Positions 12,953 through 45,799 of a stretch of DNA of 64,000 nt are shown here, one piece after another (the first letter of the stretch is position 1; the number at the start of each line of letters is the position of its first letter). A program made the translations under genes and the position numbers. The DNA comes from Lunularia cruciata (lineage: Eukaryota > Streptophyta > Marchantiopsida > Lunulariales > Lunulariaceae). Where the stretch lies: assembly GCA_948567375.1 (NCBI GenBank), contig OX419762.1, forward strand, positions 58,546,841-58,610,840. The letters are read 5' to 3'. The notes under the pieces were generated by a model. The model was not told the DNA's origin, did not search any database, and worked only from the letters and a program-made list of their open reading frames with translations.

Positions 12953-12963
12953 ATCGCCCCCTT
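12953..12963 (-). promoter_or_regulatory. Polypurine tract of copy A
   Basis: Minus strand AAGGGGGCGAT lies immediately before Y1. Copy B has AGGGGGGCAAT and copy C GGAGGGTGAT at the same place. Expected role: primer for plus-strand DNA synthesis. Confidence 0.75.
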
Positions 12964-13119
12964 AGCTGGTAGTTAGGTCCCTCTAACTCCAGATAGCCAT
13001 CTACTCCAAGTATATGGTATACCCTATGATGGACAAAGATCAAGAGGTCGGGTGCTATCGAGCCCCATCATTAGTTGTTTGTCTGCAATCTATACCATAT
13101 AAATGATGAACAAGCTATA

Positions 13120-16800: not shown

Positions 16801-17340
16801 CAAACCTTTCATCTTTCCTCTCCTATAAGCTTGGGTCCAAGATTTGGCTCCCAAGTATCCTTTGTAATTGTAGTAGGAGTGGAAGATGTGTTGATTGGCT
16901 GCTACACTGGCCCCTTGGGAGCAATAGTGTCATGCCCCTAACTACTAGAGGTCCCAACCTTTGTGTGAAAAACTCCCTCTGATCTGGCTGCAAGCTCCAT
17001 ACGTCCTCTAGCTGCATCTCAAGTAGACCAAGGGTATAATCCAAGTAGACCATTCTCCCTAGTAGCCATTGGCTACATCCCAAGAATACCATGTCCACTT
17101 GGTCCATCACCACCAACATATGCTTGAATCATCTTGATAGGCACAAGGCTCACAAGTGTTTGAGTGGTGATGCCTATCAAGCGCAACCTATGTTGCTTTG
17201 CCAAGCCAAGGCTCACAATCTAGGTCAAACAGTTCAGATCCATAGCCTAACCTAACACCTAATGCGTGGATGCCTCCAACACCGTTAGACCAACAATAAC
17301 ATCAGTGCAAAAACTCCTTTCCCGCTCTCTCTCATCAGCA
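16801..17340 (-). pseudogene. Copy A linker between methyltransferase and RT
   Basis: Minus strand. A Gly/His-rich segment (LGMQLEDVW, QVDMVFLGCSQWLLGRMV) is preceded by LGLAKQHRLRLIGIT. The same stretch follows the methyltransferase in copy B (30446-30893) and copy C (45322-45765). I recognise no domain in it. Confidence 0.6.
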
Positions 17341-18480
17341 TTGGGCTCCACCAACAACTATAACTATGAGTCCCAAACCAGTCCAAGACCTCCCTCGTGA
17401 AAAGCATGAGAGCTTGGGAAACTCTTAAGTGTGGGAAAAGCGGCTCTAAGCTATCCAACTAGGTTCATCACTGCCACAGGTGACTTATCAGCCACTACCG
17501 CTATTTGAGACTAACACCCAACATCCAAGATGTCATCAACAAGGATGTGGTCTAGTCACTGAATCCCATCATATGCATGCTTTAGAACCTCTATGGATAA
17601 GAGGTTTGTCCACCAAAGACAAAGACAATGAGCCCGTGATCCCCCTCTAGCTACATCTAACAAAATAGCAGGTCCCATCCAAGAATGGACCTGATGTGTA
17701 CTCACCACCACCCAGGTACAAGAATCACCCATCAAAGAGATGTTCTCCAAAATGTAAGTTGGAGAAACAGACTCATGAACCTGAAGATGTCATAGTATCC
17801 TTAACATCTCCCAAAACACACCAAAATGGGGTACCTAAAGACCCAAACTTCAACCAACACATTTATATCCCTAACATGGCCATCCTTAAATCACCAAATG
17901 AACATGCCCATGTCGCTCCAAATCATGCACCCCCAGTAAGGAAATGTCTACTAGTAGGGCCTTTGGTAACCCATGACTACTGGCATTGATAATAACTCAG
18001 GATACCAATAGGCCAAGTGTGCCACATGATGCAAAGAAACTCACCTAACAGTCTCATTTCTCTCCACATACAAGTACCTTTGTATTTGTATACTTGCTTG
18101 TAGTAACATAGCTAGCCCGGTGCTAATCCCACCAAACAACTCCAATAGACATACTCCCTCTATCAAATGCTGCCAAGCAATGAGTGTGGTATCCAGAGGT
18201 GTCAAGGTAATTGACTCTAGAGGCTCATCCTCACACTCATCGCCTAATTGTACAAAGGCTCCACTCCAAGCTTGCTACACCAACCGATCTCCATGTTGCT
18301 CTAATGCCTACTCTAAACTCCACAATGGAACATCCAAGGTGGATGGAACAAATCCCACTTGTACTCTAAATCTGAGTGATCTCCTCTGGTACTAGAATAT
18401 CTTTTGCATGGGCATTCCTCTCTAGTAAGTCACCAAGCCAAGTAACAACACTACTAAAAGCTAAAACTGATGTTGATATA
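17341..18480 (-). pseudogene. Copy A C5-cytosine DNA methyltransferase
   Basis: Minus strand. Motif I LLELFGGISTGLAM (about 18155-18115). Motif IV is decayed: the Pro-Cys codons of the catalytic loop are present at 17874-17879, but the next codon (Gln in copy B) is TAG. The motif VI region reads MENISLMGDS (17750-17720). The motif VIII-like region reads GSRAHCLCLWWTNL (about 17640-17600). Motifs come in the I-IV-VI-VIII order of MET/CMT/DNMT3 enzymes, not the permuted order of plant DRM. Known role of the family: methylation of cytosine C5 using S-adenosylmethionine. Embedded in pol between protease and RT. Dead copy. Confidence 0.8.
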
Positions 18481-18499
18481 GTCTCATACTATAGTGAGC

Positions 18500-18900
18500 C
18501 AAGACTACCACTATTGAATTGTAGTGGTAGGTGACATACTCGTCGTTCACCGGACTACCAACCTGGTCTATAAGAGGTTATCTCCTCCCAATAGTAAATA
18601 CTAAAACCCATGGGATATACCATTGCTCCACCGACTAGTACATCATATGACTCAATTATGGTCACAATAGCCTGAGCTCTCACCACCGAGCTATCAATCA
18701 GATGATCAGGCTGAACTTGGACAACAAGCTCCCCATATGTGATGTACTGTGTCAAACCACCACCTAGAGATGTTTGGATCTGAAATGGACACCTCTCCAC
18801 ATTGGTCTTCCGTAACTCCAAACCGACAATTACAAGCTTCCCCAACATAAAGAGATGCGCACCAGAGTCTAATAAGACTCTCTATGGTGTATAGACCTTC
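18500..18900 (-). pseudogene. Copy A aspartic protease
   Basis: Minus strand. The catalytic strand RVLLDSGA lies near 18880-18855. It is followed by VIGLELRKTNVERCPFQI, TSLGGGLTQYITYGELVV and SYDVLVGGAMVYPMGFSIYY. This is a retropepsin fold of normal size with a conventional DSG catalytic triad. It cleaves the gag-pol polyprotein in the family. One stop precedes the catalytic strand. Confidence 0.8.
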
Positions 18901-18959
18901 CCTGAAGGTCCCACCAAATGGAATTTCTACCTTTGGTTATCCAATAGGACAACACCAAG

Positions 18960-20194
18960 TGTGAACCGCACTCTCTCAAGGCCAGTCTAGTTCGTAACTC
19001 CTCCAATCTAGCCATTGCTACCTACTATATACCACTAGTTGTTGAACGGATCCCATGCTCCTCAACCAAGTCGACTCCATAATCAACCACCTCTACTCTA
19101 GTAGTAGGAACCGCACCATCCCTATTCTCACAAAGCATGGCAACCAACCAAAACATTGGGGTTAGGTCAACTCCCAATGTACACATGCCACTTGCTGGAA
19201 ATAATGAATAGTGCATAATCAGCAGAGCCACCCCCACCATTGTGCTAGATTTAGTCTTTGTACTAGCAAGTGGTTGACTAGTAGGTAGTCCATCATGCAA
19301 CCCATCACCACCTACCACACCTACACTGGGACATCTAAGAGCCATGGATGTTGTCTACAATGCCTTAGAGAGTATGAAACACTGGGGTAGTCTGACTTGT
19401 CTCCCAACCTCTCCTCTTTGTGGGTCCAACTCCATTGATGCTCCTTTAGGCTTTGGAGCAAAAACTACACTCCTAATCATTGTTGCAAATATATCCACCT
19501 ATGCTACTTTGCATATGAAGTCTAAAGCATCTCTATCACCAACATATGAGGTGGGAGCCTTAGTACCCAAATCTGATCTCCTCTGAAGAATGGCCATACT
19601 AGCCAATCTCTGCTCCAACTGCTCAATCCAAGTAGCCATAGTTGTATCAAAAGTAAGGGTGCGTACTGCACCTCTACTAGGTGTAGATCCTCTACCACCA
19701 CCTCTACCACCTCATCTTCCATCAATTGGAGCTCCTATACCACTTTCCATACTAACCTTACCACTCCATAACTTTAGGTGTAGGTCAAAGCATTGGTGAC
19801 TAGTGTGACCAATTTGTGGGAATACTCACAATGCCTCTATGTTAATTGTGATACACTAGAGGTATTAGGTCCGTTGCCCTAAGAGCACTCTCTCTTGTGA
19901 TGAGGTCCATCACAAGTCCAACAAGCAACACCACTACTCACTAGTTGCTACTGACCCGAACATAAAGGTAAAGGTCTCACTACAATAGGCCCTCCACTTG
20001 CTCCATAGGACCTAGGCTGTCCACCTGTACTCAAAAACCAACTAGACATGGTGCACTTTGTTACACTCTAGAAGATGTCACAGTTGTGGATGAGATCTCC
20101 CTACCAAATCCAAATCTCACCACTTTCTCCTCCACCATGTTGAGCTCACTACGCTAAGCCAAACTAAAGACCATTGCCAAAGTGGGCAAAGTAG
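18960..20194 (-). pseudogene. Copy A gag C-terminal half and zinc-knuckle region
   Basis: Minus strand. It corresponds to copy B 24150-25400: ALRCPSVGVVGGDGLHDGLP (about 19345-19280) and TNGLLIMHYSLFPASGMCTL follow a decayed Cys/His region near 19930-19830. The frame is broken repeatedly, and LTR1 copy 2 cuts it at 20195. Confidence 0.7.
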
Positions 20195-20959
20195 TGTAAT
20201 ACCAAGATCTAGCCATATGATCTAGATGTGAAATATATTTTGGTAACATCTGGAATAATATTATACATGATGGTCAAAATAGATCAGATAGAAGTATCAC
20301 CAAAAGAGTACTTCTACTAAAAGGGTAGAAATCAAAATAGACTTGAAAACCTTAGAACCAATATCTAAACATATGATTTAAAGGTGAGAATTAGTTTGGT
20401 AACATTTGGATGGATGTTATACATGATGGACTAGAATAGATCAGAAAGAGGTATCATCAAAAGGGGACTTCTACTAATAGAGTAGGAACCAAAATATGCT
20501 TGAAATCTTTGAAGGCAATTTTGGAGATCTAAACGAATGAATTAGGTTTCAAAAATATGCAAATTTTTCCCTTCCCCCCCAAATGTTAGAAAGGCTGGCC
20601 TTTGCCCCCCTTCCCCCCCCCCCCCTACTTTGTCTCATCAAGAGCTTTCCAATGGTACCTTGCCCATGTGATTATGAGATGCCTATAGGAAGATTCTCTA
20701 AAAGATTCCCTCTAGTCCAAGCTTTTTTGTCCAACCAAATAGGACTAGAACCGACATGTCACCCATCCAAGTAAGTAATCCAAGGATGGAGCTTGCTGAC
20801 ATGTCACCTATCTATGTGCCTAATCCTATGGTGGAGCTTCCTTGGAGGAGATCCTCTTTGTCTATATAATAAACTGAATGTGCTCCTTTAGGACATCGGA
20901 TGATTGAATATGAAATCTATGTTTTCTCTCTTCTCTTGTCCTTGGATTATTACAAGTAG
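20190..20959 (+). mobile_element. Solo LTR, family LTR1 copy 2, with 5-bp duplication
   Basis: The unit 20195-20954 (760 bp), TGTAATACCAAG...GGATTATTACA, is flanked by perfect duplications AGTAG (20190-20194, 20955-20959). TATA-like TATATAATAAA is near 20865, about 90 bp before the end. A C-rich run (C13 within 20611-20626) distinguishes it from copy 1 at 1140-1882. It lies in gag of copy A. Confidence 0.9.
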
Positions 20960-21151
20960 CCTATTATAACATAGCATCACAAACTCTAGGCTGTAACTCC
21001 TTGTTCAATATCCCAAACCAAAACTAGATTGCTTGGGCCTCAATAAATCCTTGAGTGAAATAGATCAGCCGCCTCATGCGATTGTATGCCTTATGTAGGC
21101 TCTCTCCAGCCTTCCATTGGAACTCCTCCAAGCTCCTCAACTTGTCAGTCC
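20955..21151 (-). pseudogene. Copy A gag core fragment
   Basis: Minus strand. Encodes DKLRSLEEFQWKAGESL.KAY.RMRRLI.FTQG, matching copy B gag at 23905-24010 (retrotransposon gag domain). It stops exactly where LTR2 copy 2 begins; the missing N-terminal half continues at 35049. Confidence 0.8.
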
Positions 21152-21834: not shown

Positions 21835-22274
21835 TGTCATGTTATTTGTCGCATCTAGATACTTGAACATTGGAGTTCTAGTTATAGTAGTTAGAGGTAT
21901 TTTGGCATTTACTCATAGACTACTTTCCGGCGGTCAGATTTCAGGTTTAGGGTACTGACTTCATGGCGGGGCCCACCGTCACTTGTACCGTCCACACCGT
22001 CGGGTGTGCCATCAGTGGGACTGTTGGGAGGAGACCTAGGTCGAAATTAGGGGTATACCCTAGGAGTGCAGCTCTAGAGAGCTCACTTCTCTGATTTTGA
22101 GCCTTCGAGTTCCTGGCTAGAGTGGACAAAAAGCCAACGAGCGTCACTTGGAGTCTCTTAGCTAGAGTGGGTGTGGCTTGACTGTAATCAGTGCCTTGTT
22201 GTTGGCAAGTTGTTGAGGATCAGATCAAGTATAGATTTGAGTTTCATTGATTCAAGTGGTAAACGATCTGATTA
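21835..22274 (+). repeat. 5' terminal repeat X1 of copy B (split-repeat A1)
   Basis: These 440 bp start TGTCATG and end CTGATTA, and are homologous to X2 at 34506-34935. Unlike a conventional 5' LTR it is not preceded by Y and therefore lacks the TATA box that sits in Y. The following bases are the leader with a primer-site-like motif, not Y. Confidence 0.85.
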
Positions 22275-22290
22275 CATCAGAGAAGTGAGT
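22275..22290 (+). promoter_or_regulatory. Possible primer-binding site of copy B
   Basis: CATCAGAGAAGTGAG directly follows X1. It shares ATCAGAG with the usual plant initiator-methionine site, and copy C has ATCAAAGAAGTGAG at the same position (50936-50950, minus). The match is partial, so the primer tRNA is uncertain. Confidence 0.4.
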
Positions 22291-23110
22291 CAGGGGGGAA
22301 TTGGATGCAAGAACTACGAGTGTTGGTGGTATCTCCAAGCTCGATGGATCGTGGTGTCTCCATAGCATAGTTCATTCCTTGAGAGAGTGTGTGTGTGGAA
22401 GCGCTTGCAAAATTTGGAGCCAGAGAAGAAGTAATTTTCAATCGATAGCTGTAATTTTGAGCTTAGGACCAATTTGTTGCGAGTTAAGCTCAAAAAGTCA
22501 AATGGAAGATAGAGTTGGGAGCAGATTCTCACAAATTGAAGATTGGACGAAACTGATTTTTCCAATTTGGCTTGAGTGAAGAGTTAGCTAAGGATTTAGT
22601 GGTCAGCCATTTTTAGGGATTTATGTTAGATTTATGTCAGATTTATGTCAGATTTATGTCAAATTTTATGTCAGATTTTGGCAAAAAGAACTTGAAACCA
22701 ATCCTCGGTGATCCTCGTAGCTTAGGAATTAGATAGGTACTCAAATTATATCAAATGCCAAATGGTTGCAGAGTCGGTCTTGTGTTGATTTATGAGATGG
22801 AGGGTTGTTATTAGTATTCTTGTGATTGGACCCTCTCCATTCTCTGCTTCCTGTTTGTGCACCACGTTTGTGTGAGGTGCCTTGAATTTTGAGCATTGGT
22901 GCTCTAGTGTGCTCTAGTGTGCTCTTGATAGTGAGGCTGTAGTGATGACCAGTCAGACTATCTTTGTTTCTCTCTGGTGAGGTAGGAAGTGATGACCTAG
23001 AGACTGTGAGAATGCATGTTGTGATGGCAGGTTACAGGTCACCCTTGCCCCTAGTGTAGTTGTCTCGGTTAGAGTTACATTAGTGGACAGTGTTCCGTTA
23101 GTTTTGGCAC
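22275..23110 (+). other. Leader of copy B, with 11-bp tandem repeat
   Basis: Untranslated-looking leader between X1 and the first long frame. At 22620-22678 it holds five tandem copies of an 11-bp unit (TTTATGTCAGA, slightly varied). The leader of copy C carries a related stretch near 50560-50620. No coding signal seen. Confidence 0.6.
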
Positions 23111-24217
23111 TTGGTGGTGCTCGGTTGGTATTGGCACTTGGTTAGTGTTGGCACTTGGTGGTGTTGGCACTTGGTGGGGTACTTGCTGTTGCGACTTGTT
23201 GTTGTAGCTGGTGGTTTCGGTTGCGGTTGTAGTTACTTTATCACGAAGGAGTTCTTTGGGGATTCTAAAAGAGATAGCTCTACAATACGTAGTGGGTTTA
23301 CTTGGAGTGGTACTCGGTATCAGCCTGAATCTCAAGTCCCAATGAGGGAGGAGATTGACTCTAAATTGGAGTTTGACACAAGAGTTGATTCAATTGAGAG
23401 TGCACTTGGTGTGTCCGCACCATTGATGTGGGACATGGACAAGATTTATGGGGTCTCCAAAGGCCCTAGGCGTTACTATGGTACAGTGGGTACCATTGAG
23501 TTGGATGACTTCATCCAAAAGATTGATAGTTTATGTGATCAACAGTAGATGCGGAACCTGACTTTGTTTACACCCTTCATGGCATGGAAAGGGTTGTTTC
23601 AACATCTGGAGGGTCTGCCAATGGATGACTACCATGAGTTCAAGAGTGCTCATTTGGAGGATATTGACTTATGGAGACAATATTGGTCTCCAAACTATGT
23701 CTTTATCACTTCAGGTTTGGTGGCCAGGAGTAGATTGGCTGTACTTACGAGTTCTAGCTCAAGCAGTGTTGGTGGAGCTAGTGGAGGTGGACTAGCTGGA
23801 GATAGTGTTACCATGAGTGGAGGTACCGCTGCAGGAGGTGGTGTGGTACCGGGGTTTAACCCCATGGTGGAATTCTTCTTGTGTTTGAGGCAAAACTACC
23901 AGGGAGTGTGGACTAACAAGCTGAGGAGCTTGCAAGAGTTCAAGCGGAAGGCTGGAGAGAGCCTATGTGAGGCATACACTCGCATGAGGCGGCTGATTAG
24001 TTTCACTCAAGGAGTTACTGAGGCCCAAGCAGCCCAATTTTGGTATGGGATACTGGACAAGGAGTTACGATGTAGAGTTTGTGATGCTATGTTGTTGCAA
24101 GGTACTTCACCCACTTTGGTAGTAGTCTTTGGTTTGGCTGAGCGTATTGAGCTCAACATGGTGGAGGAGAGAGTGGTGACATCTAGATTTGGCAGGGAGA
24201 CTCATCCATGGCTGTGA
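23111..24217 (+). pseudogene. Copy B gag, with an in-frame UAG followed by AUG
   Basis: A 145-codon N-terminal frame (23111-23548: FTWSGTRYQPESQVP, KIYGVSKGPRRYYG, DDFIQKIDSLC) ends in TAG. It is followed at once, in the same frame, by ATG and 222 codons (23549-24217). These contain FMAWKGLFQHLEGLPMDDYH, a Ser/Gly-rich spacer, and the core gag domain NPMVEFFLCLRQNYQG, KLRSLQEFKRKAGESL, RMRRLISFTQG, FWYGILDKELR. Gag would form the particle. The TAG-ATG junction is also present in copy C (49759-49754), so it may be ancestral rather than decay. Confidence 0.8.
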
Positions 24218-25440
24218 CTTCTTCTAGAGTGTAACAGAGTGCACCATGCCCAATTGGTTTTCGAGGACAAGGTGGACAGCCTAGATCCCATGGAGCGAGT
24301 GAAGGGCCTAGTGGAGCTAGACCCTTACCTTCATTGTCAGGTCAGCAGCAGCCAATGAGTGGTGGTGTTGCTTGTTGGAGTTGTGGTGGACCTCACCATA
24401 GGACTTGGGTTCTTGGGTTCTTGGGTATCCAATAAATTAGACTAGAAAGTGTACTGAGGGCAGCGGACCTGATACCTCTGGTGCTTCACAGCCAACATAG
24501 AGGCAGTGTGAGCATTGCCATTGATTTCGTCACACTAAAGATCAATGTTTTGACCTACACACGGAGTTAAGGAGTGGTAGGGTTGATATGGCAGGTAATA
24601 GAGGAGCTCTAGTTCATGGAGGACGAGGTGGTAGAGGTGGTGGTAGAGGATCTACACCTAGTAGGGGTGCAGTACTTGCCCTTACTTCTGATACAACTAT
24701 AGCTACTCGGATTGAGCAGTTGGAGCAAAGATTGGCTAGTATGGCTATTGCTTAGAGGAGATTAGATTCGAGTGCTCAGGCTTCCACCTCATATACTGGT
24801 GATAGAGATGCTTTGGATTTCATATACGGAGCAGCATAGGTGGATGCATCTATAGCAATGACTAGGAGTGCAGCACGTGCTCCAGAGCCTAGAGGAGCAT
24901 TAGTGGAGTTGGACCCACAGAGAGGAGAGGTTGGGAGACAGGTCAGACTTCCCCAGTCTTTCACGCTATCTGAGGCATTGCAGACGACATCCATGGTTCC
25001 TAGATGTCCCGGTGCAAGTGTGGTAGGTGGTGATGGAGTACATGATGGACTACTTGCTAGTCAGCCACCTGCTACTACACAAATTGAGTCTAGCATGATG
25101 TTGGGGGCGGCTCAGCTGATTATGCGGCATCCTTTGTTTTTGGCCAGTGACATGTTTACATTGGGAGTTGACCCAACCCCAGTGTTCTGGTTGGCTGCCA
25201 CGCTTTGTGAGAGTAGGGATGATGTGGTTCCTACTACTAGAGCAGAGGTGGTTGGTAGTGGAGCTGACTTGGTTGAGGAGCATGGGATCCATACAGCAAC
25301 AAGTGGTTTGTGGTAGGTAGCAACGGCTAGATTGGAGGAGTTGCCAACTAGACCGGCCTTCGCGAGAGCGTGGTTTAAACTTGGTGTTGTCCTATTGGAT
25401 AACTAGAGGGGGATTTTCAGTTTGGTGAGACCTTTAGGGA
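24218..25440 (+). pseudogene. Copy B gag C-terminus: zinc knuckles and Pro/Ala-rich tail
   Basis: After a frameshift, two degraded Cys/His clusters can be read (CWSCGGPHHR near 24372; a C..C..H form with TKDQCFD near 24530-24555). An open stretch at 24840-25316 follows (ELDPQRGEVGRQVRLPQSF, GGDGVHDGL, DMFTLGVDPTPVFWL). This fits nucleocapsid plus linker. The same tail is in copies A (about 19025-19345) and C (about 47660-47870). Confidence 0.65.
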
Positions 25441-25880
25441 AGGTCTATATACCATAGAGAGTCTTGTTAGACTCTGGTGCGCAACCCCTTATGTTGGAGA
25501 AGGTGGCAGTGATCGGTCTGGAGTTACGGAAGACCAATGTGGAGAGGTGTCTATTTCAGATCCATACATCTCTAGGTGGTGGTTCAACACAATACTTCAC
25601 ACGTGGGGAGCTTGTGGTCCAAGTTCAGTCTGGTCCTCCGACTGATAGCTTGATGGTGAGAGCTCAGGCTATTGCGACAAAAGTTGAGTCATATGATGTG
25701 CTAGTTAGGGGAGCAGTATTATACCCCATGGGCTTCAGCATTGACTATTGGGAGGAGACAACCTCCTATAGACCTGGTTGGCAGTCTGGTGAGGGACGGG
25801 TATGTCGCCTACTAGTACGCTTTAGTAGTGGCAGTCTTGGCTTACTACAGTTTGAGACCATGGCAGCATCAATTTGAGCT
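25440..25880 (+). pseudogene. Copy B aspartic protease
   Basis: RVLLDSGAQPLMLEKVAV begins near 25458 with the catalytic DSG, then LRKTNVERCLFQIHTSLGGG, RGELVVQVQ, and ESYDVLVRGAVLYPMGFSID. The frame from 25464 runs open for 137 codons into the methyltransferase linker (MAAS..). Retropepsin-like; processes the polyprotein in this family. Confidence 0.8.
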
Positions 25881-27014
25881 TTCAGTGGTGCAGTTACTTG
25901 GCCTGGTGATTTGTTGGAGGGGAACACCCATGCAGAGGATACTCTAGTACCAGAGGAGATCACTCGGATTTGGAGTACGAGTGGGATTGTTCCATCCACC
26001 TTAGATGTTCCATTGTGGAGTTCCAAGGAGGCATTGTAGTAGCATGCAGATCAGTTGGTGAAACAGGCTTGGAGTGGAACCTTCGTACCATCAAGAGATG
26101 AGTGTGAGGATAAGCCTCCAAAGGCGATTGCTTTGACACCTCTAGATACCACACTCATTGCTTGGTAGTATCCAATAGAGGGGATAGGCCTATTGGAGTT
26201 GTTTGGTGGGATCGGCACCGGACTAGCTGCGGTATTATAGGTGAATATACAAGTATAGAGGTACTTGTATGTAGCGAGAGATGAGATTGCTAGGAGAGTC
26301 TCTCTACATCATGTGGCACACTTGGCCTAACAATATCCAAAGTTATTACCAATGTCAACAGTCAAAGGTTACCAAAAGGCCCTACCAGGAGACATTTCCT
26401 TATTGGGGGCGCATGACCTAGAGAGACATGGGCCTATTTGCTTGGTGATTTCCGGATAGCCATGTCAGGGACATGCACGTGCTGGTAGAGATTTGGGTCT
26501 TAGGATCCTCGTTTTGGTGTGTTTTGGGAGATGTTACGGATATTACGATATCTCCAGGTTCATCAGTCCATTTCTCCAGCTTACCTTTTGGAGAGCATTC
26601 CTTTGATAGGTGATTCTCGCACTAGAGTGGTGATGAGTAGACATCAAGTCCATTCTTGGATGGGACCTTCTGTATTGTTAGATGCAGCCAGAGTGGGATC
26701 ACGTGCTCATCGTCTTCATCTTTGGTTGACAAACCTCTTACCCAGAGAGGTTTTACAGTGTGCTTATGATGGGATTTAGCGACTTGAGCACATCCTTGTT
26801 GATGACATCTTGGCTGTTGGGTGTCAGTCTCAGACAATGGTAGTGGCTGATAGGTCCCCTATGGCGGTGGTGAACCTAGTTGATAGCCTAGAGCCGCATT
26901 TCCCAACTCATGAGTTTCCTAGGCTCCCATGCGTTTCGAGAAGGAGGACTTGGACTTGTTTAGGATTCATAGTAACAACAATTGGTGGAGCCCAACACTG
27001 ATGAGAGAGAGCGG
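25881..27014 (+). pseudogene. Copy B C5-cytosine DNA methyltransferase inside gypsy pol
   Basis: Motif I LELFGGIGTGLAAVL (26193-26237). A Rossmann strand with IQV.RYLYVARDEIARR follows, then GDISLLGAHD, and the catalytic loop LVISG*PCQGHARAGR (PCQ at 26460-26468; the stop is TGG to TAG). After one frameshift comes FGVFWEMLRILRYL, motif VI as YLLESIPLIGDS (26581-26616), VHSWMGPSVLLDAARVGS, and motif VIII-like AHRLHLWLTNLLPREVL (26701-26750). IQV.RY and LLDA..V resemble DNMT3 enzymes. The target-recognition part seems to follow motif VIII. It methylates DNA cytosines in the known family; here it lies between protease and RT. A 3.4-kb insertion truncates its tail at 27015. Confidence 0.85.
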
Positions 27015-27536
27015 TGTCATTGGGAAAATAGCCCACGTGTACCCTTGAGGCTTTTGGTGTGATAAATTTTCTTTTTCTCTTCTAGTTGTTGTAAGGAACA
27101 TGGATTTATGTCAATATGTTGCATGTGTAGTTTTATGCTACCTTGCTGCGGGAGATATTTCCTATATTATTGTGCAGCCGGGAAAAGTTATGGTGTTATT
27201 AGCTCAAGGAGTCTTTTAATGTGGCTTGAGCCAAGAAACAATGTTGGGTTACACTAGCTCAGGTTCTATTTTACGTTATTGGAATGAAGGAGTATTTGCC
27301 TTAGAAGAGAAGCAAAAAGGAGTCTTTCAGTTGGAAATCCTTGGGAGGCTTTAGAGGAGTGGTGACAATGAAAGGTTTGGGGGAAAAACAGCATGAAAAA
27401 GTTAGAGGAGTGAAGGAACTCAGCTCGGAGGGAGAGGATTTTTGAGGGAAAAGGTTCTAGACAGAGGGCTGCAGGGAAGATTTTTGAGAGATATACCTGG
27501 CTGTGCAGGGCTTTGAGGGAGGGACAGGAAGAAATT

Positions 27537-28460
27537 TGGAGAGAAAGGCCTGCTGGGAGAAAGGAGAATTATCGAAGGGTTAGGGCTTGGCCAGGAGAGA
27601 GAGGAGAAGTTTCGAAAGGGCTTGCTGTCCAGAAATTGGGAGAGAAAGGCTTGCTGGGAGAAAGGAGAATTATTGAAGGGTTAGGGCTTGGCCAAGAGAG
27701 AGAGGAGAAGTTTCGAAAGGGCTTGCTGTGCAGAAATTGGGAGAGAAAGGCTTGCTAGGAGAAAGGAGAATTATCAAAGGGTTAGGGCTTGGCCGGGAGA
27801 GAGAGGAGAAGTTTCGAAAGTGCTTGCTGTGCAAAAATTTGGAGAGAAAGGCCTGCTGGGAAAAAGGAGAATTATCAAAGGGTTACGGCTTGGCCAGGAG
27901 AGAGAGGAGAAGTTTCGAAAGTGCTTGCTGTGCAGAAATTTGGAGAGAAAGGCCTGCTGGGAAAAAGGAGAATTATCGAAGGGTTAGGGCTTGGCCAAGA
28001 GAGAGAGGAGAAGTTTCGAAAGTGCTTGCTGTGCAGAAATTTGGAGAGAAAGGCCTGCTGGGAGAAAGGAGAATTATCAAAGGGTTAGGGCTTGGCCAGG
28101 AGAGAGAGAAGTTTTGAAAGTGCTTGCTGTGCAGAAATTTGGAGAGAAAGGCCTGCTGGGAGAAAGGAGAATTATCGAAGGGTTAGGGCTTGGCCAGGAC
28201 AGAGAGAAATTTTTGAAAGTGCTTGCTGTGCAGAAATTTGGAGAGAAAGGCCTGCTGGGAGAAAGGAGAATTATCGAAGAGTTAGGGCTTGGCCAGGAGA
28301 GAGAGAGAAGTGTCAAAAGTGCTTGCTATGCAGAAATTTGGAGAGAAAGGCCTGCTGGGAGAGAGGAGAATTATCGAAGGGTCAGGGCTTGGCCAGGAGA
28401 GAGAGAGAAGTTTTGAAAGTGCTTGCTGTGCAGAAATTTGGAGAAAAAGGCCTTCTGTTG
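27537..28460. repeat. Tandem array of about nine ~100-bp units
   Basis: Units of 98-101 bp recur at about 27537, 27638, 27740, 27841, 27942, 28043, 28141, 28240 and 28339, each with GAGAGAAAGGCCTGCTGGGA and ATTATCGAAGGGTTAGGGCT. Units 3' of 28090 lack 2-3 bases in the AGAGAG stretch. High mutual similarity suggests recent amplification. Strongly purine-rich on the plus strand. Confidence 0.9.
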
Positions 28461-29395
28461 AGATAGGACCAGGGGAAAGATTTCCAGATGCCTTCTGTTG
28501 AGACAGGACCAAGGGAAGGATTTCGAGATGCCTGAGGTCTGAGATAGGACCTGTGGATGAATTTTTGAAATTTGGCAAGAGAGTGTTGAGGGCTGAAAGA
28601 TTTTGAGATGCCTTCTGTTGAGACAAGACCAGGGGGAAAGATTTTGAGATGCCTTCTGTTGAGACAGGACCAAGGGAAGGATTTTGAGATGCCTGAGGTA
28701 TGAGATAGGACCAGTGGATGAATTTTCAAAATTTGGCAGGAGAGTGTTAAGGGCTGAAAGATTTTGAGATGCCTTCTGTTGAGACAGGACCAGGGGAAGG
28801 ATTTCGAGATGCTTGAGGTCTGAGATAGGACCAGTGGGTGAATTTTCAAAATTTGCAGGAGAGTGTTGAGGGTTGAAAGATTTTGAGATGCCTTCTGTTG
28901 AGACAGGACCAGGGGAAGGATTTCAAGATGCCTGAGGTCTGAGATAGGACCAGTGGATGAATTTTTGAAATTTGGCAGGAGAGTGTTGAGGGCTGAAAGA
29001 TTTCGAGATGCCTTCTGTTGAGACAGGACCAGGGGAAGGATTTTGAGATGCCTGAGGTTTGAGATGCCTGAGGTCTAAGATAGGACCAGTGGATGAATTT
29101 TTGAAATTTGCAGGAGAGTGTTGAGGGCTGAAGGATTTTGAGATGCCTTCTGTTGAGACAGGACCAGGGGAAGGATTTCGAGATGCCTAAGGTTTGACAT
29201 AGGACCAGTGGGTGAATTTTCAAAGTTTGCAGGAGAGTGTTGAGGGCTGAAAGTTTTTCGAAATGCTGTAGGCTGTGCTTGGACCAGGGGAAGGATTTTT
29301 GAGATGCCTGAGGTTTGAGATTGGACCAGTGGGTGAATTTTTGAAGTTGCAGGAGAGTGTTGAGGGCTGAAAGATTTTCAAAATGCTGTAGGTAG
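28461..29395. repeat. Second tandem array of ~120-bp units
   Basis: Repeated blocks contain GATGCCTTCTGTTGAGACAG, GGATTTCGAGATGCCTGAGG and GCAGGAGAGTGTTGAGGGCT. Main repeats start near 28490, 28611, 28771, 28887, 29007 and 29147, with degenerate units to about 29395. A partial internal duplication is at 29050-29075. It follows array 1 directly but is unrelated to it. Confidence 0.85.
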
Positions 29396-30439
29396 TGCTT
29401 GAAAGTGCAGGGGAGAAAAAGGGTTTTCTCTCAAAAGAATGAACAATGTGTAGGAGAGGAAGTGCTTGGACAGAAGAGAAATTTTCGCAAGTCTGAAGGG
29501 ATTTGGGCAGAAGTTGAAGAGAACAAAATTTTGCAAGGAAGCAAGAGGACAGGAGATTCAGACAATAGAAAATTTTTGCACATCTGAAGGGGATTTGCTG
29601 CAGAAGTTGCCAAAGGATATCTCCCGAAGTCAAGAAGAAGAGGAGGAGAATTTTGAAGTGGATCAGCCCATCTAGAGCAAGGGCAAGAAAATATTTGAAG
29701 TTGGTTGGCCTGTCTGAATGGAGTGAATCTGATCTGCAAAACAAGGTAGAGGAGAATGAAGAGGTTCGGAGTGTGAGTTGCCTTGTCTGTTGTCGAACAG
29801 AGTATATCTGAAGTGCCGGCTGAGTTGATGAGCAGTTGCAACCTTAGGGCAGGCATTGCCTTGACTAGAACTATTTGACTTATCCAACCTTGTGAACTTT
29901 GTTATTGAAATTCTTGTGAATGATGAGTCTTGGAAGCGGATTTGTGTTATGAATTGTGACTAGAGTTGAGGAAAACTCCATTCTAGGAGCTCTTAGTCCA
30001 GTCCAAGTGAATAGCATAATTAAATGATCTGGGTGCCTTGGTTTATGTTTAGTTAGATCACTCAGTTGTTGTTTATTTTATTGATTTTATTTTATCAAAG
30101 GGCCACCTGACCTAGGTCTATGAACTGCCAGATTCCGAACCATAGCTTGGACCTGACGTGAAAATAGAATATGAGACCAGGCAGAGGTAGAAACCATAAC
30201 ACCAGACTTGCATGACAAGATTAGTTTTGCAAAAGTCAAGGATAAAACAAAACCTTCAGGGAGAGCCAACCTCATGGAAACTGAAACAACAAGTTCATAT
30301 AGAGACAAATTCCCGACAATCCAAGAGTAGGGAAGGAATGTCAGTCTACGGGAAAATCCAAAAGAAAGACAATAAGGAAAACTAAGCACAAGCAGCCATG
30401 TGCTTGGCGCACTCTCAAGACCGAACGTTCCCCACAACA
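29396..30439. other. Non-repetitive right part of the 3.4-kb insertion
   Basis: No domain recognised. A purine-rich stretch runs to about 29700. The last 340 bp (from about 30100) differ in composition and end in the terminal CCCCACAACA. Open frames on both strands look like chance. Confidence 0.5.
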
Positions 30440-30443
30440 GCGG

Positions 30444-31990
30444 GCGATGGGTTTTTGCGTCGGTATCACCACTGTTCCAACAATGTTAGAGGTATCCAAG
30501 CGTCAGGTGTTAGGTCAAGCTATGGACCTGAACTGTTTGACTTGGATTGTGAGCCTTGGCTTAGCAAAGCAGCATAGCATGCGCTTGATAGGCATCACGA
30601 CTCGGACACTTGTGAGCCCTGTGCCTATCGAGACAATTCAGGCACATGTTGGGGGTGATGGACCAAGTGGACATGGTATTCTTGGGACACATCCAGTAGC
30701 TACTAGGGAGAGTGGTCTACTTGGGGTCCATCCAGGTGAGCATGGGCTACTTGGATTACACCCGTGGTCCACTTGGGATGCAACTAGAGGACGTGTGGAG
30801 CTTGCAGCCAAAGTGGACGGAGTTATTCACATAAAGGTTGGGACCTCTAGTGGTCGAGGGCATGATACTATTGCTCCTAAGGGCCTAGTGTAGCAGCCAG
30901 TCAGTACGTCTTCCACTCCTATGACAATTACAAAGGATACTTGGGAGCCAGATCTTGGACCCAAGCTTATTGGAGAGGAAAGATGGAAGGTTTGGAGGTT
31001 CTTGAGGAGTCACACGGGTTGTTTTGCCTTTAGTAAGAAGGATTTGGGTGCTCTGAAGGGACTTGGTATACGGATTGAGCTGACTAGGGATACACCAGTT
31101 TTCCGACGTCCTTATCGCTATAGTGATATGGAGAGGACATTGATTTAGAGCCAAAGTACTGACCTTTTGGGGCTGGTTTGGTGGAGACTTCACATGGAGA
31201 GTATGCATCAACAACAATGATGCCAACCAAGAAGGATATGCATGGCAACTATACAGATAGGCGGATGTGTGGAGATTAATGTCCTATCAACCGACAGACC
31301 ATGGCCAGCGGTCAAATTTTTAATGAAATTATGAGTATATCCACTTTTCCTAATGTGATAAATAGTTGCGGACTTCGGCTTTAAAAATCTACTACTGGAA
31401 AACCAAAAATACACATATGTTTTTTGTTTTTTGTTTTTTATTTGTAGGAGACCCAAAGGGGCGCTATCCGATAGGGTACTTGGTTTTGTCCAACAAAAGA
31501 AAGGGGTTGATTGGTATGCCATGCCTACACCGGATGAGAATTTTAATGTGATTGGGCATGCAAAGGTCTTTAGTACTTTGGATCTTTGAGTGGGATATCA
31601 TCAGTTGCAGATCAGGAAGGAAGATAAGTCCAATACAACATTCTGGGCTATTGATCCTCACGGCAAGGATGTGTTATATAAGTGGATATTCTTACCGTTT
31701 GGGTTAAAGAATGCTCATGTTGAGTTCTAGAGGGTCATGGATATGATCCTAGCTGGATTGGATTTTTCTCGGTGCTATGTTGATGACATTTTGGTCTATA
31801 GCAATACTGTGGAGGAGCATGAGAGACAATTGTTGGAGGTGTTTGAGAGGTTGAGATCTCTAGACTCAAATTACATCCTGGGAAGTGTAGGTTCTTCCAT
31901 GAGCGTGTTGAGTATTTAGGTCATACTATCTACCCTGGAGGACTTGGTGTTTAGTAGACAAAGGTGGAGGCTATTGCATGTATTCCTCGG
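30444..31990 (+). pseudogene. Copy B pol: linker and reverse transcriptase
   Basis: Resumes after the insertion with LGQAMDLNCLTWIVSLGLA and a Gly/His-rich linker (30447-30893). Then come RT motifs: LGIRIELTRDTPVFRRPYRY (about 31061-31120), PTKKDMHGNYTDRRMCGD, FSTLDL*VGYHQLQI (about 31572), FLPFGLKNAHVEF (about 31690) and the active-site box CYVDDILVYS (31773-31802, intact). GWQTS/FLGLANFY-like sequence near 32020 closes the domain. A 200-bp foreign segment (about 31304-31505) interrupts it between the first and second halves. Several stops. Confidence 0.85.
31304..31505. other. ~200-bp insertion within copy B RT
   Basis: Copies A and C run straight from the CAACCAACAAAC region to the TTGATTGGTA region, whereas copy B has about 200 extra bases. 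They include a T-rich tract ending TTTTTTATTTGTAG|G (near 31445), which looks like a 3' splice site. No clear target duplication seen. Origin unknown. Confidence 0.55.
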
Positions 31991-32099
31991 CCTACGGATG
32001 TGAGTAGAGTGCAAGCATTCCTTGGGTTGGCAAACTTCTACTGCCGCTATGTTAGAGGATTTAGTGCCATCGCCAAGGCCTTGATGAAGCTGACCAAGC

Positions 32100-32630
32100 T
32101 TACATAGGAGTGGTGTTGGGGAGATGAGCAGGAGGGAGCTTTTGTAGAGCTCAAGGAGAGGTTGACATTTGCTCCTATTTTGAGGAGACTGATCAAAGGA
32201 TGACCATTTTAGGCTCATACTTATTGGAGTATGTTAGGGCTTGGAGTGGTGCTCACCCAACATGATGATGAGGGGAAGGAGTTTGTGGTGGCCTATGCTA
32301 GTCGCTCCAACAATTCAGCGGAGGCAAAGTATAGTTCATATGAGGGAGAGTGTTTGGTAATAGTTTGGGCAATAGCACATTTCCGATGTTACCTATTTGG
32401 TAACCCCTTCACTCTCATCATTGATCATCAGCCGCTGAAGTGGTTGATGGAGTCCGACAAGCTTTCAGGGAAGCTTGCACAATGGGTTTTGATTTTACAG
32501 GAGTATGATTTCACGATTGTTCACAAACCTGGAGTGGTGAACCGTGATGCAGATAGGTTGAGTAGAAACACATGTCCTAGCCAGCAGATTAGACCAGAGC
32601 ATGTTGGCATGGTGAGACAGATGAGGAGAT
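32100..32630 (+). pseudogene. Copy B RNase H
   Basis: Open from 32231: GVVLTQHDDEGKEFVVAYAS, AEAKYSSYEGECLVIVWAI, IIDHQPLKWLMESDK, QEYDFTIVHKPGVVNRDADR. The motifs D, E and D..H of gypsy RNase H can be read, but the N-terminal strand with the first catalytic Asp is frameshifted (32160-32230). In the family it degrades the RNA template during cDNA synthesis. Confidence 0.85.
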
Positions 32631-32929
32631 GGTGCCAGGTTGGCATGCATTTGCCTTTATGTGTATATTTTCTGAGGCTTTGGTGGTATCTCTCTCAGCG
32701 CATACAAGAGGAGTTATTGAGGTCATAGATCCAAAGAGTGAGGATATTGGTACAGTTCAGCGAGACATACATGATGATGTCTTAGTGATGGACTATCTTT
32801 GCACTAGTATTGTGGGTGGCACAGTTGGGGCCAAGGAGAGAGATTGTGTTCTTCAATGAGCCAAACGATTCAGATTGGAAGGCAGACATCTTTTGTCTAT
32901 TGCGTGTATGGGAAGATGGTAGAGTGTGA

Positions 32930-33990
32930 GTAGTACCACTTCCATCTCAAAGACCACAGTTGGTCCGCCATACTCATGAGGAGCTAGGACATTTTGGAGT
33001 AAAGCGTATGTATAGCTTACTCCAAAGTCATTATTGGTGGAGTGGTATGTAGATTGAGGTACAACAATTTGTAGCCAGATGTGTGGTTTGTGACCAAGTT
33101 AGAGCATCATTCAATGCTCCTACACCACAGTTACACCCATTACCTATCATGGGATTGGGTTATCGTTGGAGTTTGGACTTTGCTTGACCTTTACCGTTGA
33201 TTGTGAGACATAATTGGTATGTTTTGGTGATGGTGGAGCACTTCTCCAAGTGGATTGAGTTGGTGGCACTTCCTAACAAGTATAGTGAAGGGACGGCTTA
33301 CTCGTTCTAAGATCAAGTTCTTAGTCATTTTGGTGCACCAGCTGAGGTTTTGACTGATCAGGGTACAAAGTTCTGGGGGAGTTTCAGGTCTTGTATGACA
33401 AGGCTTTGATTGATCATCGTACTACATCTTGAGATCACCCTGAGGCAGATGGCTTAGTAGAGAGAGTGGTTCAAATGGTGAAGAGAGGATTGCAAAAGTA
33501 TGGTTTGCAGAGAGGCCACTTGGGAGATTGGGATCTCCAATTACCTTGGTTGGCCATGGGCTATCGGTTCAGCCGGAAAGCCTCCTTAGCATCCTTCTCT
33601 CCGTACTTTCTACTTTATGGATGAGATCCAGATTTACCTATAGCCATTCGTCTAGATGCTAATGTAGTTTTGGACTTGGATGACCCAAATGTATGGATGA
33701 GCACATGTTCTCAGCGGGCAGAGATCTATTGGAGAGTGATGACGATGGCCTTTGAGAACTTGGTGATTGCTTAGCATAGAGATACTTTACGCTATGCTAC
33801 CATTCGAGGAGGAGGTTATAGACTCTCGATCTGTTGATTTTGTTTAGGTGACTATGTATATCTATAGTAGACAGCACCGACGACACTTGATGTTTCTACA
33901 AGCCACACTATCTTGAGAGTGTATGAGGTTTTGCCATTTGGAGTCCTTGTGTTGGAAGGACGTGATGGTGTTATTTAGAAGGATCATGTG
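32930..33990 (+). pseudogene. Copy B integrase (DDE)
   Basis: Zinc-binding HHCC module: RHTHEELGHFGVKRMYSLLQ through CVVCDQ (about 32970-33095). Catalytic core: RWSLDFA with the first Asp (about 33176), VMVEHFSKWIELVAL, FGAPAEVLTDQGTKFW with the second Asp (about 33352), and PEADGLVERVVQMVKRG with the Glu (about 33460). Then LPWLAMGYRFSRKASLASFSPYFLLYG. It integrates cDNA into the host genome. This is the diagnostic enzyme that sets family 1 apart from tyrosine-recombinase elements despite its split repeats. Contains stops. Confidence 0.88.
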
Positions 33991-34212
33991 CGCAATTAAG
34001 CACCATGCCACCTCCCAAACATTGATGGTACTATGGACCCAAGCTTGACACTTGTACGTGCAGGCTTGAGGTGTATGTTATGTGTGTTTTCTGGTGGAGC
34101 TGCTACTATGTTAGTGTGTGATAGCTGTTCAAGAGGATGGCATATGGCATGTATGACTCCTCCCCTCACGGTGGTTCCTCAAGGATAGTGGTTATGTCCT
34201 AGATGTACTTGA
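33991..34212 (+). pseudogene. C-terminal PHD finger of copy B pol
   Basis: After the integrase tail (HATSQTLMVLW frame-shifted; NIDGTMDP-like) the last codons read RCMLC..SGGAATMLVCDSCSRGWHMACMTPP..VVPQG*WLCPRCT, then TGA at 34210-34212. Spacing C-x2-C ... C-x2-C-x4-H-x2-C ... C-x2-C (first Cys near 34072, last near 34204) is a complete C4HC3 PHD finger with the usual Trp before the last Cys pair. One TAG replaces a residue before WLCP. Known PHD fingers mostly read the histone H3 tail. Here it would sit at the very end of the integrase and could direct integration. Confidence 0.85.
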
Positions 34213-34370
34213 CCTATAGCTAGTTCATTCTTTATATGGGATAGATTGCAAACAGGCAACTAATGATGGGGCTCCATAGCACCCGTCCTCTTGATCTTTG
34301 CCTATCATAAGGTATACCACATACTTAGAGTAGATGGCTATCTGGAGTTAGAGGGACCTAACCGCCAGCT

Positions 34371-34381
34371 AGGGGGGCAAT
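34371..34381 (+). promoter_or_regulatory. Polypurine tract of copy B
   Basis: AGGGGGGCAAT lies immediately before Y1 (TGTAGCACTTTAG), about 160 bp after the pol stop. Equivalent to tracts in copies A and C. Confidence 0.8.
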
Positions 34382-34505
34382 TGTAGCACTTTAGAGTCTA
34401 TGTATGATTTATGTGTGAGTTGTGCTTCCATTGTGTATGATGTTGATAGTGATGTATGTTGTGTAGCGATGTATATTGTGTAGCAATATATATACGCATG
34501 ATAGC
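34382..34505 (+). repeat. Repeat Y1 of copy B (split-repeat B1)
   Basis: These 124 bp, TGTAGCACTTTAGAGTC...ACGCATGATAGC, carry a TATA-like TATATATAC (34486-34494) about 15 bp before the Y|X junction. About 20 bp longer than Y2 because of a local duplication of GTAGCGATGTAT-like sequence. Confidence 0.85.
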
Positions 34506-34513
34506 TGTCATGC
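34496..34513 (+). promoter_or_regulatory. Palindromic Y1|X2 junction of copy B
   Basis: GCATGATAGCTGTCATGC: 6-bp perfect arms (GCATGA/TCATGC). It equals the element's outer 3' end (..CACGACA) and outer 5' end (TGTCATG..) placed back to back with a 2-base spacer. Copy A has TGATAGCTATCA and copy C has GCATGA...TCATGA at the same place. Confidence 0.8.
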
Positions 34514-34935
34514 CATTTGTAGTGCCGCATCTAGATGCTCAGACATTGGAGTTCCAGTTATAGTAGTTAGAGGCATTTTGGCAGTTACTCATAGACTACT
34601 TTCCAATAGTCAGATTTCAGATTTAGGGTATTGACCTCATGGCAGGGCCCACTGTCACTTGCACCGTCTGCACCGTCGAGTGTGCCGTCAGCGGGACCGT
34701 TGGGAGGAGACCTAGGTCAAAATCAGGGGTTTACCCTAGGAGTGTAGTCCAGAGAGCTCACTTCTTTGATGTTGAGCCTTCGAGTTCCTGACTAGAGTGG
34801 ACAGAAAGCCGGTGAGCGTCACCTGGAGTCTCTTAGCTAGAGTGGGTGTGGCTTGACTATAATCAGTGCACTCTTGTGGGCAAGTTATTGAAGATCAGAT
34901 CAAGTATTGATTTGAGTGGTAAACAACCCGATTAT
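34506..34935 (+). repeat. Repeat X2 of copy B (split-repeat A2)
   Basis: These 430 bp are homologous to X1 (21835-22274), with small indels near the 3' end. It meets Y2 directly at GATTAT|TGTGGCAC. The same X|Y joint occurs in copy C at 41590/41591 and in copy A at 12394/12395. Confidence 0.85.
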
Positions 34936-35040
34936 TGTGGCACTTTAGAGTCTATGTATGACTTATGTGTGAGTTGTGCTTCTATTGTATATGATGTTAA
35001 CAGCAATGTATGTTGTGTAGTGATGTATATACGCACGACA
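34936..35040 (+). repeat. 3' terminal repeat Y2 of copy B (split-repeat B2)
   Basis: These 105 bp, TGTGGCACTTTAGAG...ATATACGCACGACA, form the outer 3' end of the element. They are followed by the last 8 bp of LTR2 copy 2 and then by gag of copy A. Confidence 0.85.
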
Positions 35041-35048
35041 ATGTTACA

Positions 35049-35775
35049 ATCCACACTCCTTGGTAGTCTTTCCTCAAACAATGGAAGAACTACACCATGG
35101 GATTAAACCTTAGTACCACACTACCTCCTATAGAGGTACCTCCACTTGTAGTAGCACTATCTCCAGCTAGTGCACCTCCACTAGCTCCACCAATGCTACT
35201 TGAGCTAGAACTTGTGGGTACTATTGATCTATTCTTGGCAACCGAGCTTGAAGTGATAGAGACAAAGTTTGGAGGCCAATATTGTCTCCATAACTCGATC
35301 TCCTCCAAGTGAGCTCTCGTGAACTCGTGGTAATCTTCTATCAATAATGGTGTGTCCACAATAATAGTGCAGGCATGCCAAGTGCACTCTCAACTGAATC
35401 AGCTCTTGTGTAAAACTCCAACTCAAAGTCAATTTCTTCCCTCCCTGGGACTTGAGATACAAGCTGATACCAAGCACCACTCCAAGTAAACCCACTGTGT
35501 ACTAATGGGCTATCTCCTCTAAAATCCCTAAAGAATTCTATTGTGACAAAGTAACTGCAACCACAATCACAAACTACAACCATAGACGGCAACCGCAAGT
35601 TCTCCACCAAGTGCAAACACCACCAACCAAGTGCCAATACCCACAGAACATTACCCACTAATGTAACTCTAATTGAGATAACAACTAGGAGAAAGGGTGA
35701 CCTGTAACCTACCATCCCAACACGCACTCTCATGGTCTTCATGTCTTCACTTCTTGCCTCACCGGAAAGAAACAA
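35049..35775 (-). pseudogene. Copy A gag N-terminal half
   Basis: Minus strand. Frame 35775-35341 reads CSYFVTIEFFRDFRGDSP, GFTWSGAWYQLVSQVPGREE and SVESALGMPALLLW, matching copy B 23220-23440. After an internal deletion, 35359-35090 reads DYHEFTRAHLEEIELWRQYW, a Ser-rich spacer, then VVLRFNPMV. The deletion removes the region where copies B and C have the TAG-ATG junction. Confidence 0.8.
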
Positions 35776-39318: not shown

Positions 39319-39321
39319 CTT

Positions 39322-45765: not shown

Positions 45766-45799
45766 TCACTCCCTCTCATCAACATTAGGCTCCACCAAT

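What the first reader, a model, noticed from the sequence alone, without database searches (positions are those of the whole stretch)
25881..27014. C5-cytosine DNA methyltransferase encoded inside gypsy pol
Between protease and RT all three family-1 copies carry a cytosine methyltransferase: motif I (LELFGGIG), the PC(Q) catalytic loop followed by AGR..GL, a motif VI-like E-S/N-I, and a motif VIII-like AHR...LW.TNL, in non-permuted order (copy A about 17341-18480, copy C about 45800-46760). Its presence at the same place in three separately inserted copies shows that it belongs to the family. DNMT-bearing retrotransposons have been reported, as far as I recall, in charophyte algae and dinoflagellates; one in a plant genome like this would be notable. 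Resemblance is closest to DNMT3-type enzymes by eye.
Basis: partly seen in the sequence, partly recalled or inferred. Interest (0 to 1): 0.93.

Follow-up and report, generated by a model that had tools for sequence, protein, structure and literature searches.

The report
Retrotransposon that carries its own methyltransferase
Three decayed copies of one plant jumping gene each carry the remains of a DNA-methylating enzyme, in a family also present in mosses and liverworts, and its layout suggests that the enzyme was made together with the particle shell rather than with the copying enzymes.

Summary
Copies A, B and C of one Ty3/gypsy family carry a decayed, non-permuted C5-cytosine methyltransferase between protease and RT. 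Window pieces alone gave no Pfam hit, but one found relatives at 58-65% identity in Sphagnum, Marchantia, Riccia and metagenomes; 7 of 10 scanned match PF00145, and a profile of 30 relatives matches DNMT3 best among solved structures. In a tree the relatives form one clade, with the window inside its bryophyte branch. The copies are separate insertions; B sits inside A. All three have the split-repeat layout reported for Klebsormidium KnitGypsy-Dnmt3 (PMC5890265), so the kind is known.

Not seen in my paper searches: land-plant members; a PHD finger ending the integrase; and a TMV-type leaky-stop motif (UAG-CAR-YYA) between methyltransferase and RT, present in all three copies and in an open-frame relative, L003. 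If it leaks, the methyltransferase is made at Gag rather than Pol levels. C-to-T decay at CG and CHG sites indicates that the copies were methylated. Host unknown. Activity and leakiness are inferred.

The parts
21836..35037 (+). copy B of the DNMT-gypsy element, from A1 to B2, including a 3.4-kb foreign insertion
   Evidence: TGTT at both ends, inside repeat R2
21836..22242 (+). copy B, terminal repeat A1
   Evidence: 87.4% to 34506-34917
23435..24402 (+). copy B, gag remains
   Evidence: tblastn with Marchantia P0121 (residues 1-311)
25458..25874 (+). copy B, protease piece (DSGAQPLML)
   Evidence: aligned to P0121 and L003 ORF1. Pfam: no hit for this piece
26170..27014 (+). copy B, DNMT motifs I to IX (to DERER)
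27015..30439 (.). foreign insertion in the DNMT of copy B (TG...CA ends, (A)GCGG duplication, 101-bp and 120-bp tandem arrays)
30440..30584 (+). copy B, end of the DNMT (AMGF...motif X)
30891..30899 (+). copy B, TMV-type leaky-stop motif TAGCAGCCA between DNMT and RT, in frame with both
30903..32587 (+). copy B, RT and RNase H
   Evidence: tblastn; RNase H by Pfam above cut-off; RT piece below it
32897..34209 (+). copy B, integrase with C-terminal PHD finger (PHD about 34072-34170)
   Evidence: PF00628 E=2.8e-7 for 34000-34185
34380..34476 (+). copy B, repeat B1
   Evidence: 90.7% to 34934-35030
34506..34917 (+). copy B, repeat A2
34934..35037 (+). copy B, terminal repeat B2
12281..21151 (-). 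copy A, main part (contains repeat R1 at 14723-15416)
35050..36660 (-). copy A, 5' part beyond the nested B (gag start, leader, A1 36311-36658)
17106..18274 (-). copy A, DNMT
16896..16904 (-). copy A, leaky-stop motif TAGCAGCCA
41486..51394 (-). copy C (contains repeat R3 at 48414-49083)
45550..46675 (-). copy C, DNMT
45316..45324 (-). copy C, leaky-stop motif TAGCAATCA

Best explanation
It is a Ty3/gypsy retrotransposon family with a DNMT3-type cytosine-5 methyltransferase as a regular part of its polyprotein. The order is Gag, protease, DNMT, leaky UAG, RT, RNase H, integrase, PHD finger, between DIRS-like split repeats A1...B1-A2-B2. Shown by sequence: the domain order, separate insertions, the stop motif, the PHD finger and the split repeats. 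Inferred: (1) most ribosomes stop at the UAG, so the DNMT is made with Gag, and a minority read through to make RT and integrase; (2) the protease frees the DNMT inside the particle; (3) it methylates the new double-stranded cDNA before integration, marking the incoming copy as already silent or protecting it; (4) the PHD finger, whose solved relatives include readers of unmodified H3K4 (recalled), steers integration to unmarked chromatin. My estimates: identity 0.95; leaky stop used in the living ancestor 0.75; cDNA methylation as the role 0.4; PHD targeting 0.4. The confidence below is for the whole down to step 1.
Against: No window copy is intact. A codon-position test between copies shows no third-position excess in the DNMT (for example B-A 0.21, 0.15, 0.17 for positions 1-3), because decay after insertion dominates, so the window itself gives no sign of selection on the DNMT. 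The copies carry CG and CHG decay, so the enzyme did not spare them from methylation. The KnitGypsy-Dnmt3 domain was inactive in yeast, which its authors call inconclusive (PMC5890265, section 10). The readthrough motif occurs 7 times in the window against 5.4 expected by chance: only its placement, not its presence, is telling. Sphagnum gene model P0152 gave lower DNMT identity to L003 (34.6%). In several annotated bryophyte gene models DNMT and RT are in one protein (for example P0129, P0136); I take these as spliced predictions but could not read their DNA.
Confidence: 0.72

Rival explanations
1. A host gene fragment was carried into one element by chance and copied along passively; it never worked for the element.
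For: All window copies are broken and show no third-position excess.
Against: The same domain, with catalytic residues kept, sits in gypsy polyproteins from liverworts, Sphagnum and metagenomes, in one clade.
Confidence: 0.04
2. The domain works on RNA, or as a non-catalytic DNA or RNA tether in the particle, not as a DNA methyltransferase.
For: Some C5 enzymes (DNMT2) act on tRNA; the KnitGypsy domain was inactive in yeast.
Against: Closest to DNMT3, not DNMT2 (90 against 28 bits); catalytic Cys and motif VI kept.
Confidence: 0.2
3. The enzyme harms the silencing machinery: it competes with or mis-sets host methylation in trans, instead of marking its own cDNA.
For: High expected expression on the Gag side of the stop would suit a trans role.
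Against: Nothing here shows release from particles. The copies still show CG and CHG decay.
Confidence: 0.12
4. The enzyme was captured from a phage or bacterium rather than from a eukaryotic Dnmt3 gene.
For: A phage methyltransferase is itself closer to human DNMT3B (9e-31) than the gypsy enzymes are (best DNMT3 E 1.7e-7 and 2e-6 for single relatives), and in my tree DNMT3B groups with phage enzymes (97/91), apart from the gypsy clade. The loop is PCQ, as in bacterial enzymes (recalled), not PCN.
Against: One DNMT3 row only, long branches, no plant DNMT3; PMC5890265 calls the K. nitens gypsy enzymes Dnmt3-related, in a more divergent clade.
Confidence: 0.25

Closest known systems
KnitGypsy-Dnmt3 of Klebsormidium nitens (de Mendoza et al. 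2018, PMC5890265; abstract, sections 9-11 and passages read)
   Same: Ty3/gypsy domains, non-rearranged Dnmt3-type enzyme in the polyprotein, DIRS-like split repeats.
   Different: Here a lineage shared with bryophytes. A PHD finger and a readthrough stop are seen here; the words PHD and readthrough do not occur in that paper's main text.
SymbioDIRS-Dnmt3 and SymbioLINE-Dnmt of Symbiodinium (same paper)
   Same: Retroelements that encode a DNMT; domain order in Pol varies in SymbioDIRS, as among relatives here.
   Different: Tyrosine-recombinase DIRS or LINE elements; no DDE integrase.
Bryophyte proteins not described as such in any paper I saw: Marchantia, Riccia, Calypogeia, Sphagnum (P0121, P0122, P0129, P0136, P0124, P0011, P0017, P0152 and others)
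   Same: Same family: protease-DNMT, and in some models RT, integrase or PHD; the window rows sit in their clade.
   Different: Open reading frames or gene models; the window lineage has its own stem (0.3).
Chromoviruses (recalled)
   Same: Ty3/gypsy with a chromatin-reader module at the end of the integrase.
   Different: PHD finger, no chromodomain match; DNMT and split repeats are additional.
Tobacco mosaic virus leaky UAG (readthrough about 6-10% in plants; PMC2754532, passages)
   Same: UAG followed by CAR YYA (motif name recalled).
   Different: Found here between a DNMT and RT in a retrotransposon; leakiness untested.

Membership tests
C5-cytosine methyltransferases (PF00145) | motif I F.G.G, PC loop, ENV, R.R in canonical order | tested here: met
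   B reads LELFGGIG, PCQ, E-S-I, AHRLHLW; A and C keep the PC codons and E-N-I, while motif VIII is decayed in them
C5-cytosine methyltransferases (PF00145) | profile match above cut-off | tested here: inconclusive
   0 of 9 short DNMT pieces of the window; 7 of 10 close relatives
DNMT3 type | closest to DNMT3 by sequence profile and fold | tested here: met
DNMT3 type | PCN catalytic loop (recalled signature) | tested here: not met
   C and Q each in 28 of 29 rows with a letter; DNMT3B prints PCN
DNMT3 type | clade with eukaryotic host DNMT3 genes | tested here: inconclusive
   only DNMT3B as reference; it groups with phage enzymes, not with the gypsy clade
DRM | rearranged motif order | tested here: not met
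   motif I precedes the PC loop in the same domain
Ty3/gypsy | PR-RT-RH-INT order with DDE integrase | tested here: met
   window by tblastn, RNase H by Pfam, RT and rve pieces below cut-off; L003 ORF2 by Pfam: RVT_1, RNase H, H2C2, rve
KnitGypsy-Dnmt3-like elements | split repeats A-coding-B-A-B | tested here: met
   3 of 3 copies
KnitGypsy-Dnmt3-like elements | sequence clade with the K. nitens element | not testable with these tools
   no row listed or 40 bore that name
Chromoviruses | chromodomain after the integrase | tested here: not met
   PHD instead; no chromodomain up to E=1 in L003 ORF2 or the window pieces scanned
TMV-type readthrough | UAG CAR YYA at the end of the upstream frame, same frame open after it | tested here: met
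   L003, A, B, C; same frame checked in L003 and B only
TMV-type readthrough | measurable readthrough | not testable with these tools
   needs a reporter assay

The most novel reading that the evidence does not exclude
A land-plant and algal lineage of gypsy elements produces its cytosine methyltransferase as a structural-level product, with Gag, upstream of a TMV-type leaky stop. The enzyme coats and methylates the cDNA inside the particle, and a PHD-tipped integrase places the pre-silenced copy in H3K4-unmethylated chromatin: a transposon that arrives already marked as heterochromatin.
Probability: 0.3. Interest if true: 0.85.

Novelty: new member of a known kind. Interest (0 to 1): 0.62.

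Why it matters
Transposons are the usual target of cytosine methylation; elements that encode it are rare in print. Here the kind is seen in four bryophyte genera, with long open frames annotated in Marchantia, a plant that can be transformed (recalled). That makes the open question of what a transposon gains from its own methyltransferase testable. The conserved leaky stop, if real, fixes the dose of the enzyme relative to RT, a clue to its role that I did not see in print.

Tried and rejected
Chance or a single host fragment: rejected (three insertions, many relatives). DRM-type: rejected by motif order. Canonical LTRs: rejected, because the 5' end has A only while the 3' end has B-A-B in 3 of 3 copies. 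Selection test between window copies: no third-position excess in the DNMT, so no claim from it; in the short upstream linker the second position changed least (0.05-0.13), which I do not lean on. Repeat R as part of B's 5' end: rejected, because TGTT on both sides and the interrupted TGTT^ACAA end of R show that B inserted into R. Bacterial contig as evidence of bacterial hosts: rejected; L003 and P0053 are taken as eukaryotic sequence in mis-binned contigs (inference). Phage origin: not settled. Target duplications for A and C could not be defined. DNMT1 chains do not appear in the 60 of 65 rows shown, nor DRM or DNMT1 in the 50 entries shown; absence there excludes nothing. Rows dropped: the tree leaves out 4 of the 57 rows (P0180, P0191, P0193, L009) as long-branched or fragmentary; with all 57 also holds the gypsy-type clade (47 rows, SH-aLRT 95), but places DNMT3B and two viral rows differently. 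Host species: not found; the genome search did not complete. Rfam and tRNA scans of the window: nothing.

Full report
What is there. The window holds three copies of one Ty3/gypsy family. A blastn self-comparison and tblastn with relatives resolve them. Copy A (minus strand) runs from 12281 to 21151 and resumes at 35050-36660. It is split by copy B (plus, 21836-35037), which lies inside a 690-nt repeat, R2 (21152-21835), that had itself entered A's gag. B is flanked by TGTT on both sides and R2 by TCC. Copy C (minus) is 41486-51394. Identity between paired terminal repeats is 87.4% for B, 81.6% for A and 78.8% for C, so B is the youngest, in keeping with the nesting. Three separate insertions are thus shown.

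The methyltransferase. In all three copies the stretch between protease and RT encodes a decayed C5-cytosine methyltransferase in canonical order. In B it begins near 26170, is cut after DERER at 27014 by a foreign insertion with TG...CA ends and an (A)GCGG duplication, and resumes at 30440 with AMGF. Window pieces alone gave nothing: 0 of 9 DNMT pieces in Pfam, and a three-row profile found no methyltransferase in the PDB. A piece of B searched against 5.8 billion proteins returned 11 hits among 360 candidates, all at E of 1.5e-22 or better and 58-65% identical. Those with plant names were Sphagnum, Marchantia and Riccia. Seven of ten of these relatives pass the PF00145 cut-off (P0010 was not scanned); the three that do not (P0008, P0009, P0011) lack the catalytic loop in their gene models.

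Spread. A profile search gave 363 hits at E up to 0.001 among 8000 scored candidates (120 listed). A search for long proteins gave 75 among 8000. In the listed rows, where a plant is named it is a bryophyte: Marchantia polymorpha, M. paleacea, Riccia sorocarpa, Calypogeia fissa or Sphagnum species. Most other rows are unnamed metagenome or genome proteins, among them sets at about 45-55% and about 32-44% identity to P0005. The three window rows form a clade (100/99), with a stem of 0.3, inside a 23-row clade (100/99) of liverwort (11), moss (4), unnamed (5) and window rows. The host of the window is not known: the genome search did not complete. Decay between copies is concentrated at CG (17 of 63 site readings, 27%) and CHG (32 of 138, 23%) against CHH (90 of 1141, 8%) and A/T transitions (95 of 1699, 6%) (DNMT region only, polarised by the majority of three). 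This fits plant-type CG and CHG methylation of silenced copies.

Element anatomy. Locus L003, a 9285-nt contig in a metagenome bin labelled cyanobacterium with identical 127-nt ends, holds a relative with open frames. ORF1 (1158 residues from its first ATG in the contig; it seems to start further up, across the repeated ends) has gag and zinc knuckle by similarity and by eye, a protease below the Pfam cut-off (20.5 of 24.3 bits) and the DNMT; ORF2 is RT, RNase H, integrase and PHD finger (1043 residues), all above cut-off. I take it as a mis-binned algal element (inference). The PHD finger is also in window B (PF00628, E=2.8e-7) and in Marchantia P0161. Its nearest solved relatives are mixed and include CHD4, PHF12, KMT2D, UHRF1, KDM5 and PHF21A (60 of 84 shown); that several of these read unmodified H3K4 is recalled knowledge. 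Each window copy has repeat A at the 5' end and B-A-B at the 3' end, the DIRS layout that PMC5890265 gives for KnitGypsy-Dnmt3 in its figure legends. Among 77 relatives of 550 residues or more with domain hits, 46 have the DNMT directly after the protease as in the window, 14 have it after RNase H, and 17 show too few domains or another order. So the enzyme has changed place within the polyprotein, unless related enzymes were gained twice.

The leaky stop. L003's ORF1 ends in TAG CAA TCA and ORF2 continues in the same frame. At the homologous place, between DNMT and RT, B has TAGCAGCCA (30891), A TAGCAGCCA (16896, minus) and C TAGCAATCA (45316, minus). All four fit the UAG-CAR-YYA context of tobacco mosaic virus (name of the motif recalled; TMV readthrough of about 6-10% in plants, PMC2754532, passages). 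The motif as such is not rare (7 in the window, 5.4 expected); what is striking is the same site in three decayed insertions and in a relative whose DNMT is only about 40% identical to copy A's. Marchantia ORF1 protein P0121 ends at about the same place. Of 25 ORF1-type proteins checked, 18 hold the motif-X string sought and end 71 to 141 residues after it; some of these are fragments. Hence the DNMT lies on the Gag side of the stop and should outnumber RT. Against this, some annotated gene models join DNMT and RT; I could not read their DNA.

How it most likely works. Gag-protease-DNMT is the main product; readthrough adds RT, RNase H, integrase and PHD. The enzyme is packaged and most plausibly methylates cDNA before integration, as PMC5890265 proposed for its DIRS elements (section 11); the PHD finger would guide integration. 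Purifying selection is suggested by kept catalytic residues and by DNMT conservation in the range of the protease, far above gag, though below RT and RNase H. It is not shown in the window, where the codon-position test was negative. Activity is unproven; the KnitGypsy domain gave no methylation in yeast, which its authors call inconclusive.

Known or new. DNMT3-bearing gypsy elements are known from one charophyte (PMC5890265). A 2025 paper mentions DNMT3s in streptophyte and dinoflagellate retrotransposons in a sentence (PMC12344493, passages). In the main text of the plant LTR-element survey PMC6317226 the words methyltransferase, PHD and Marchantia do not occur. In the listings of my ten searches and the passages I read I saw no report of land-plant members, of the PHD finger or of the leaky stop in such elements; the library holds open-licence papers only, and I did not read most of the listed papers. 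I therefore file it as a new member of a known kind, with features that may make the whole kind testable.

Noticed in passing
14723-15416 (-), 21152-21835 (+), 48414-49083 (-): A repeat of about 690 nt, ends TGTGAGC...TTACA(A), inserted three times: in A's RNase H-integrase region, in A's gag and in C's gag; probably solo LTRs of another family.
   Followed up: partly
27015-30439: Foreign insertion in B's DNMT, TG...CA ends with (A)GCGG duplication, carrying 9.3 copies of a 101-bp unit at 93% match and a second array of about 120-bp units; its two longest minus-strand ORFs have no Pfam match above cut-off.
   Followed up: partly
36927-39354 (-): A second, distant gypsy family (about 25-39% to the DNMT elements in most RT and integrase stretches), with no DNMT found at E up to 0.01: a control showing that the enzyme belongs to family 1.
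   Followed up: partly
3957-4520 (+): Copia-type RT remains (RVT_2, E=6.6e-34).
   Followed up: no
62404-63207 (+): Further gypsy RT/RNase H fragment, Pfam match below cut-off.
   Followed up: no
40201-40677 (-): ORF with a zinc-knuckle-like stretch just below the Pfam cut-off (18 of 20.8 bits), perhaps gag of the second family.
   Followed up: no
1140-1882 and 20195-20954: Inverted pair at 84%, each with a two-copy tandem repeat of 156-157 bp.
   Followed up: no
L003:1-9285: Contig with identical 127-nt ends in a bin labelled Synechococcales cyanobacterium is a gypsy-DNMT element with open frames; P0053 (named as an Obscuribacterales MAG protein) has a DNMT of the same clade: probably eukaryotic contamination of bacterial bins.
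   Followed up: partly
relatives P0162, P0164, P0170, P0176 and others: Elements with the DNMT between RNase H and integrase instead of after the protease, so on the Pol side of the ORF boundary.
   Followed up: partly
L008 (Pseudomonas phage Epa40): A phage methyltransferase that matches human DNMT3B better (9e-31) than it matches HhaI (about 1e-13): DNMT3-like enzymes occur in phages.
   Followed up: partly
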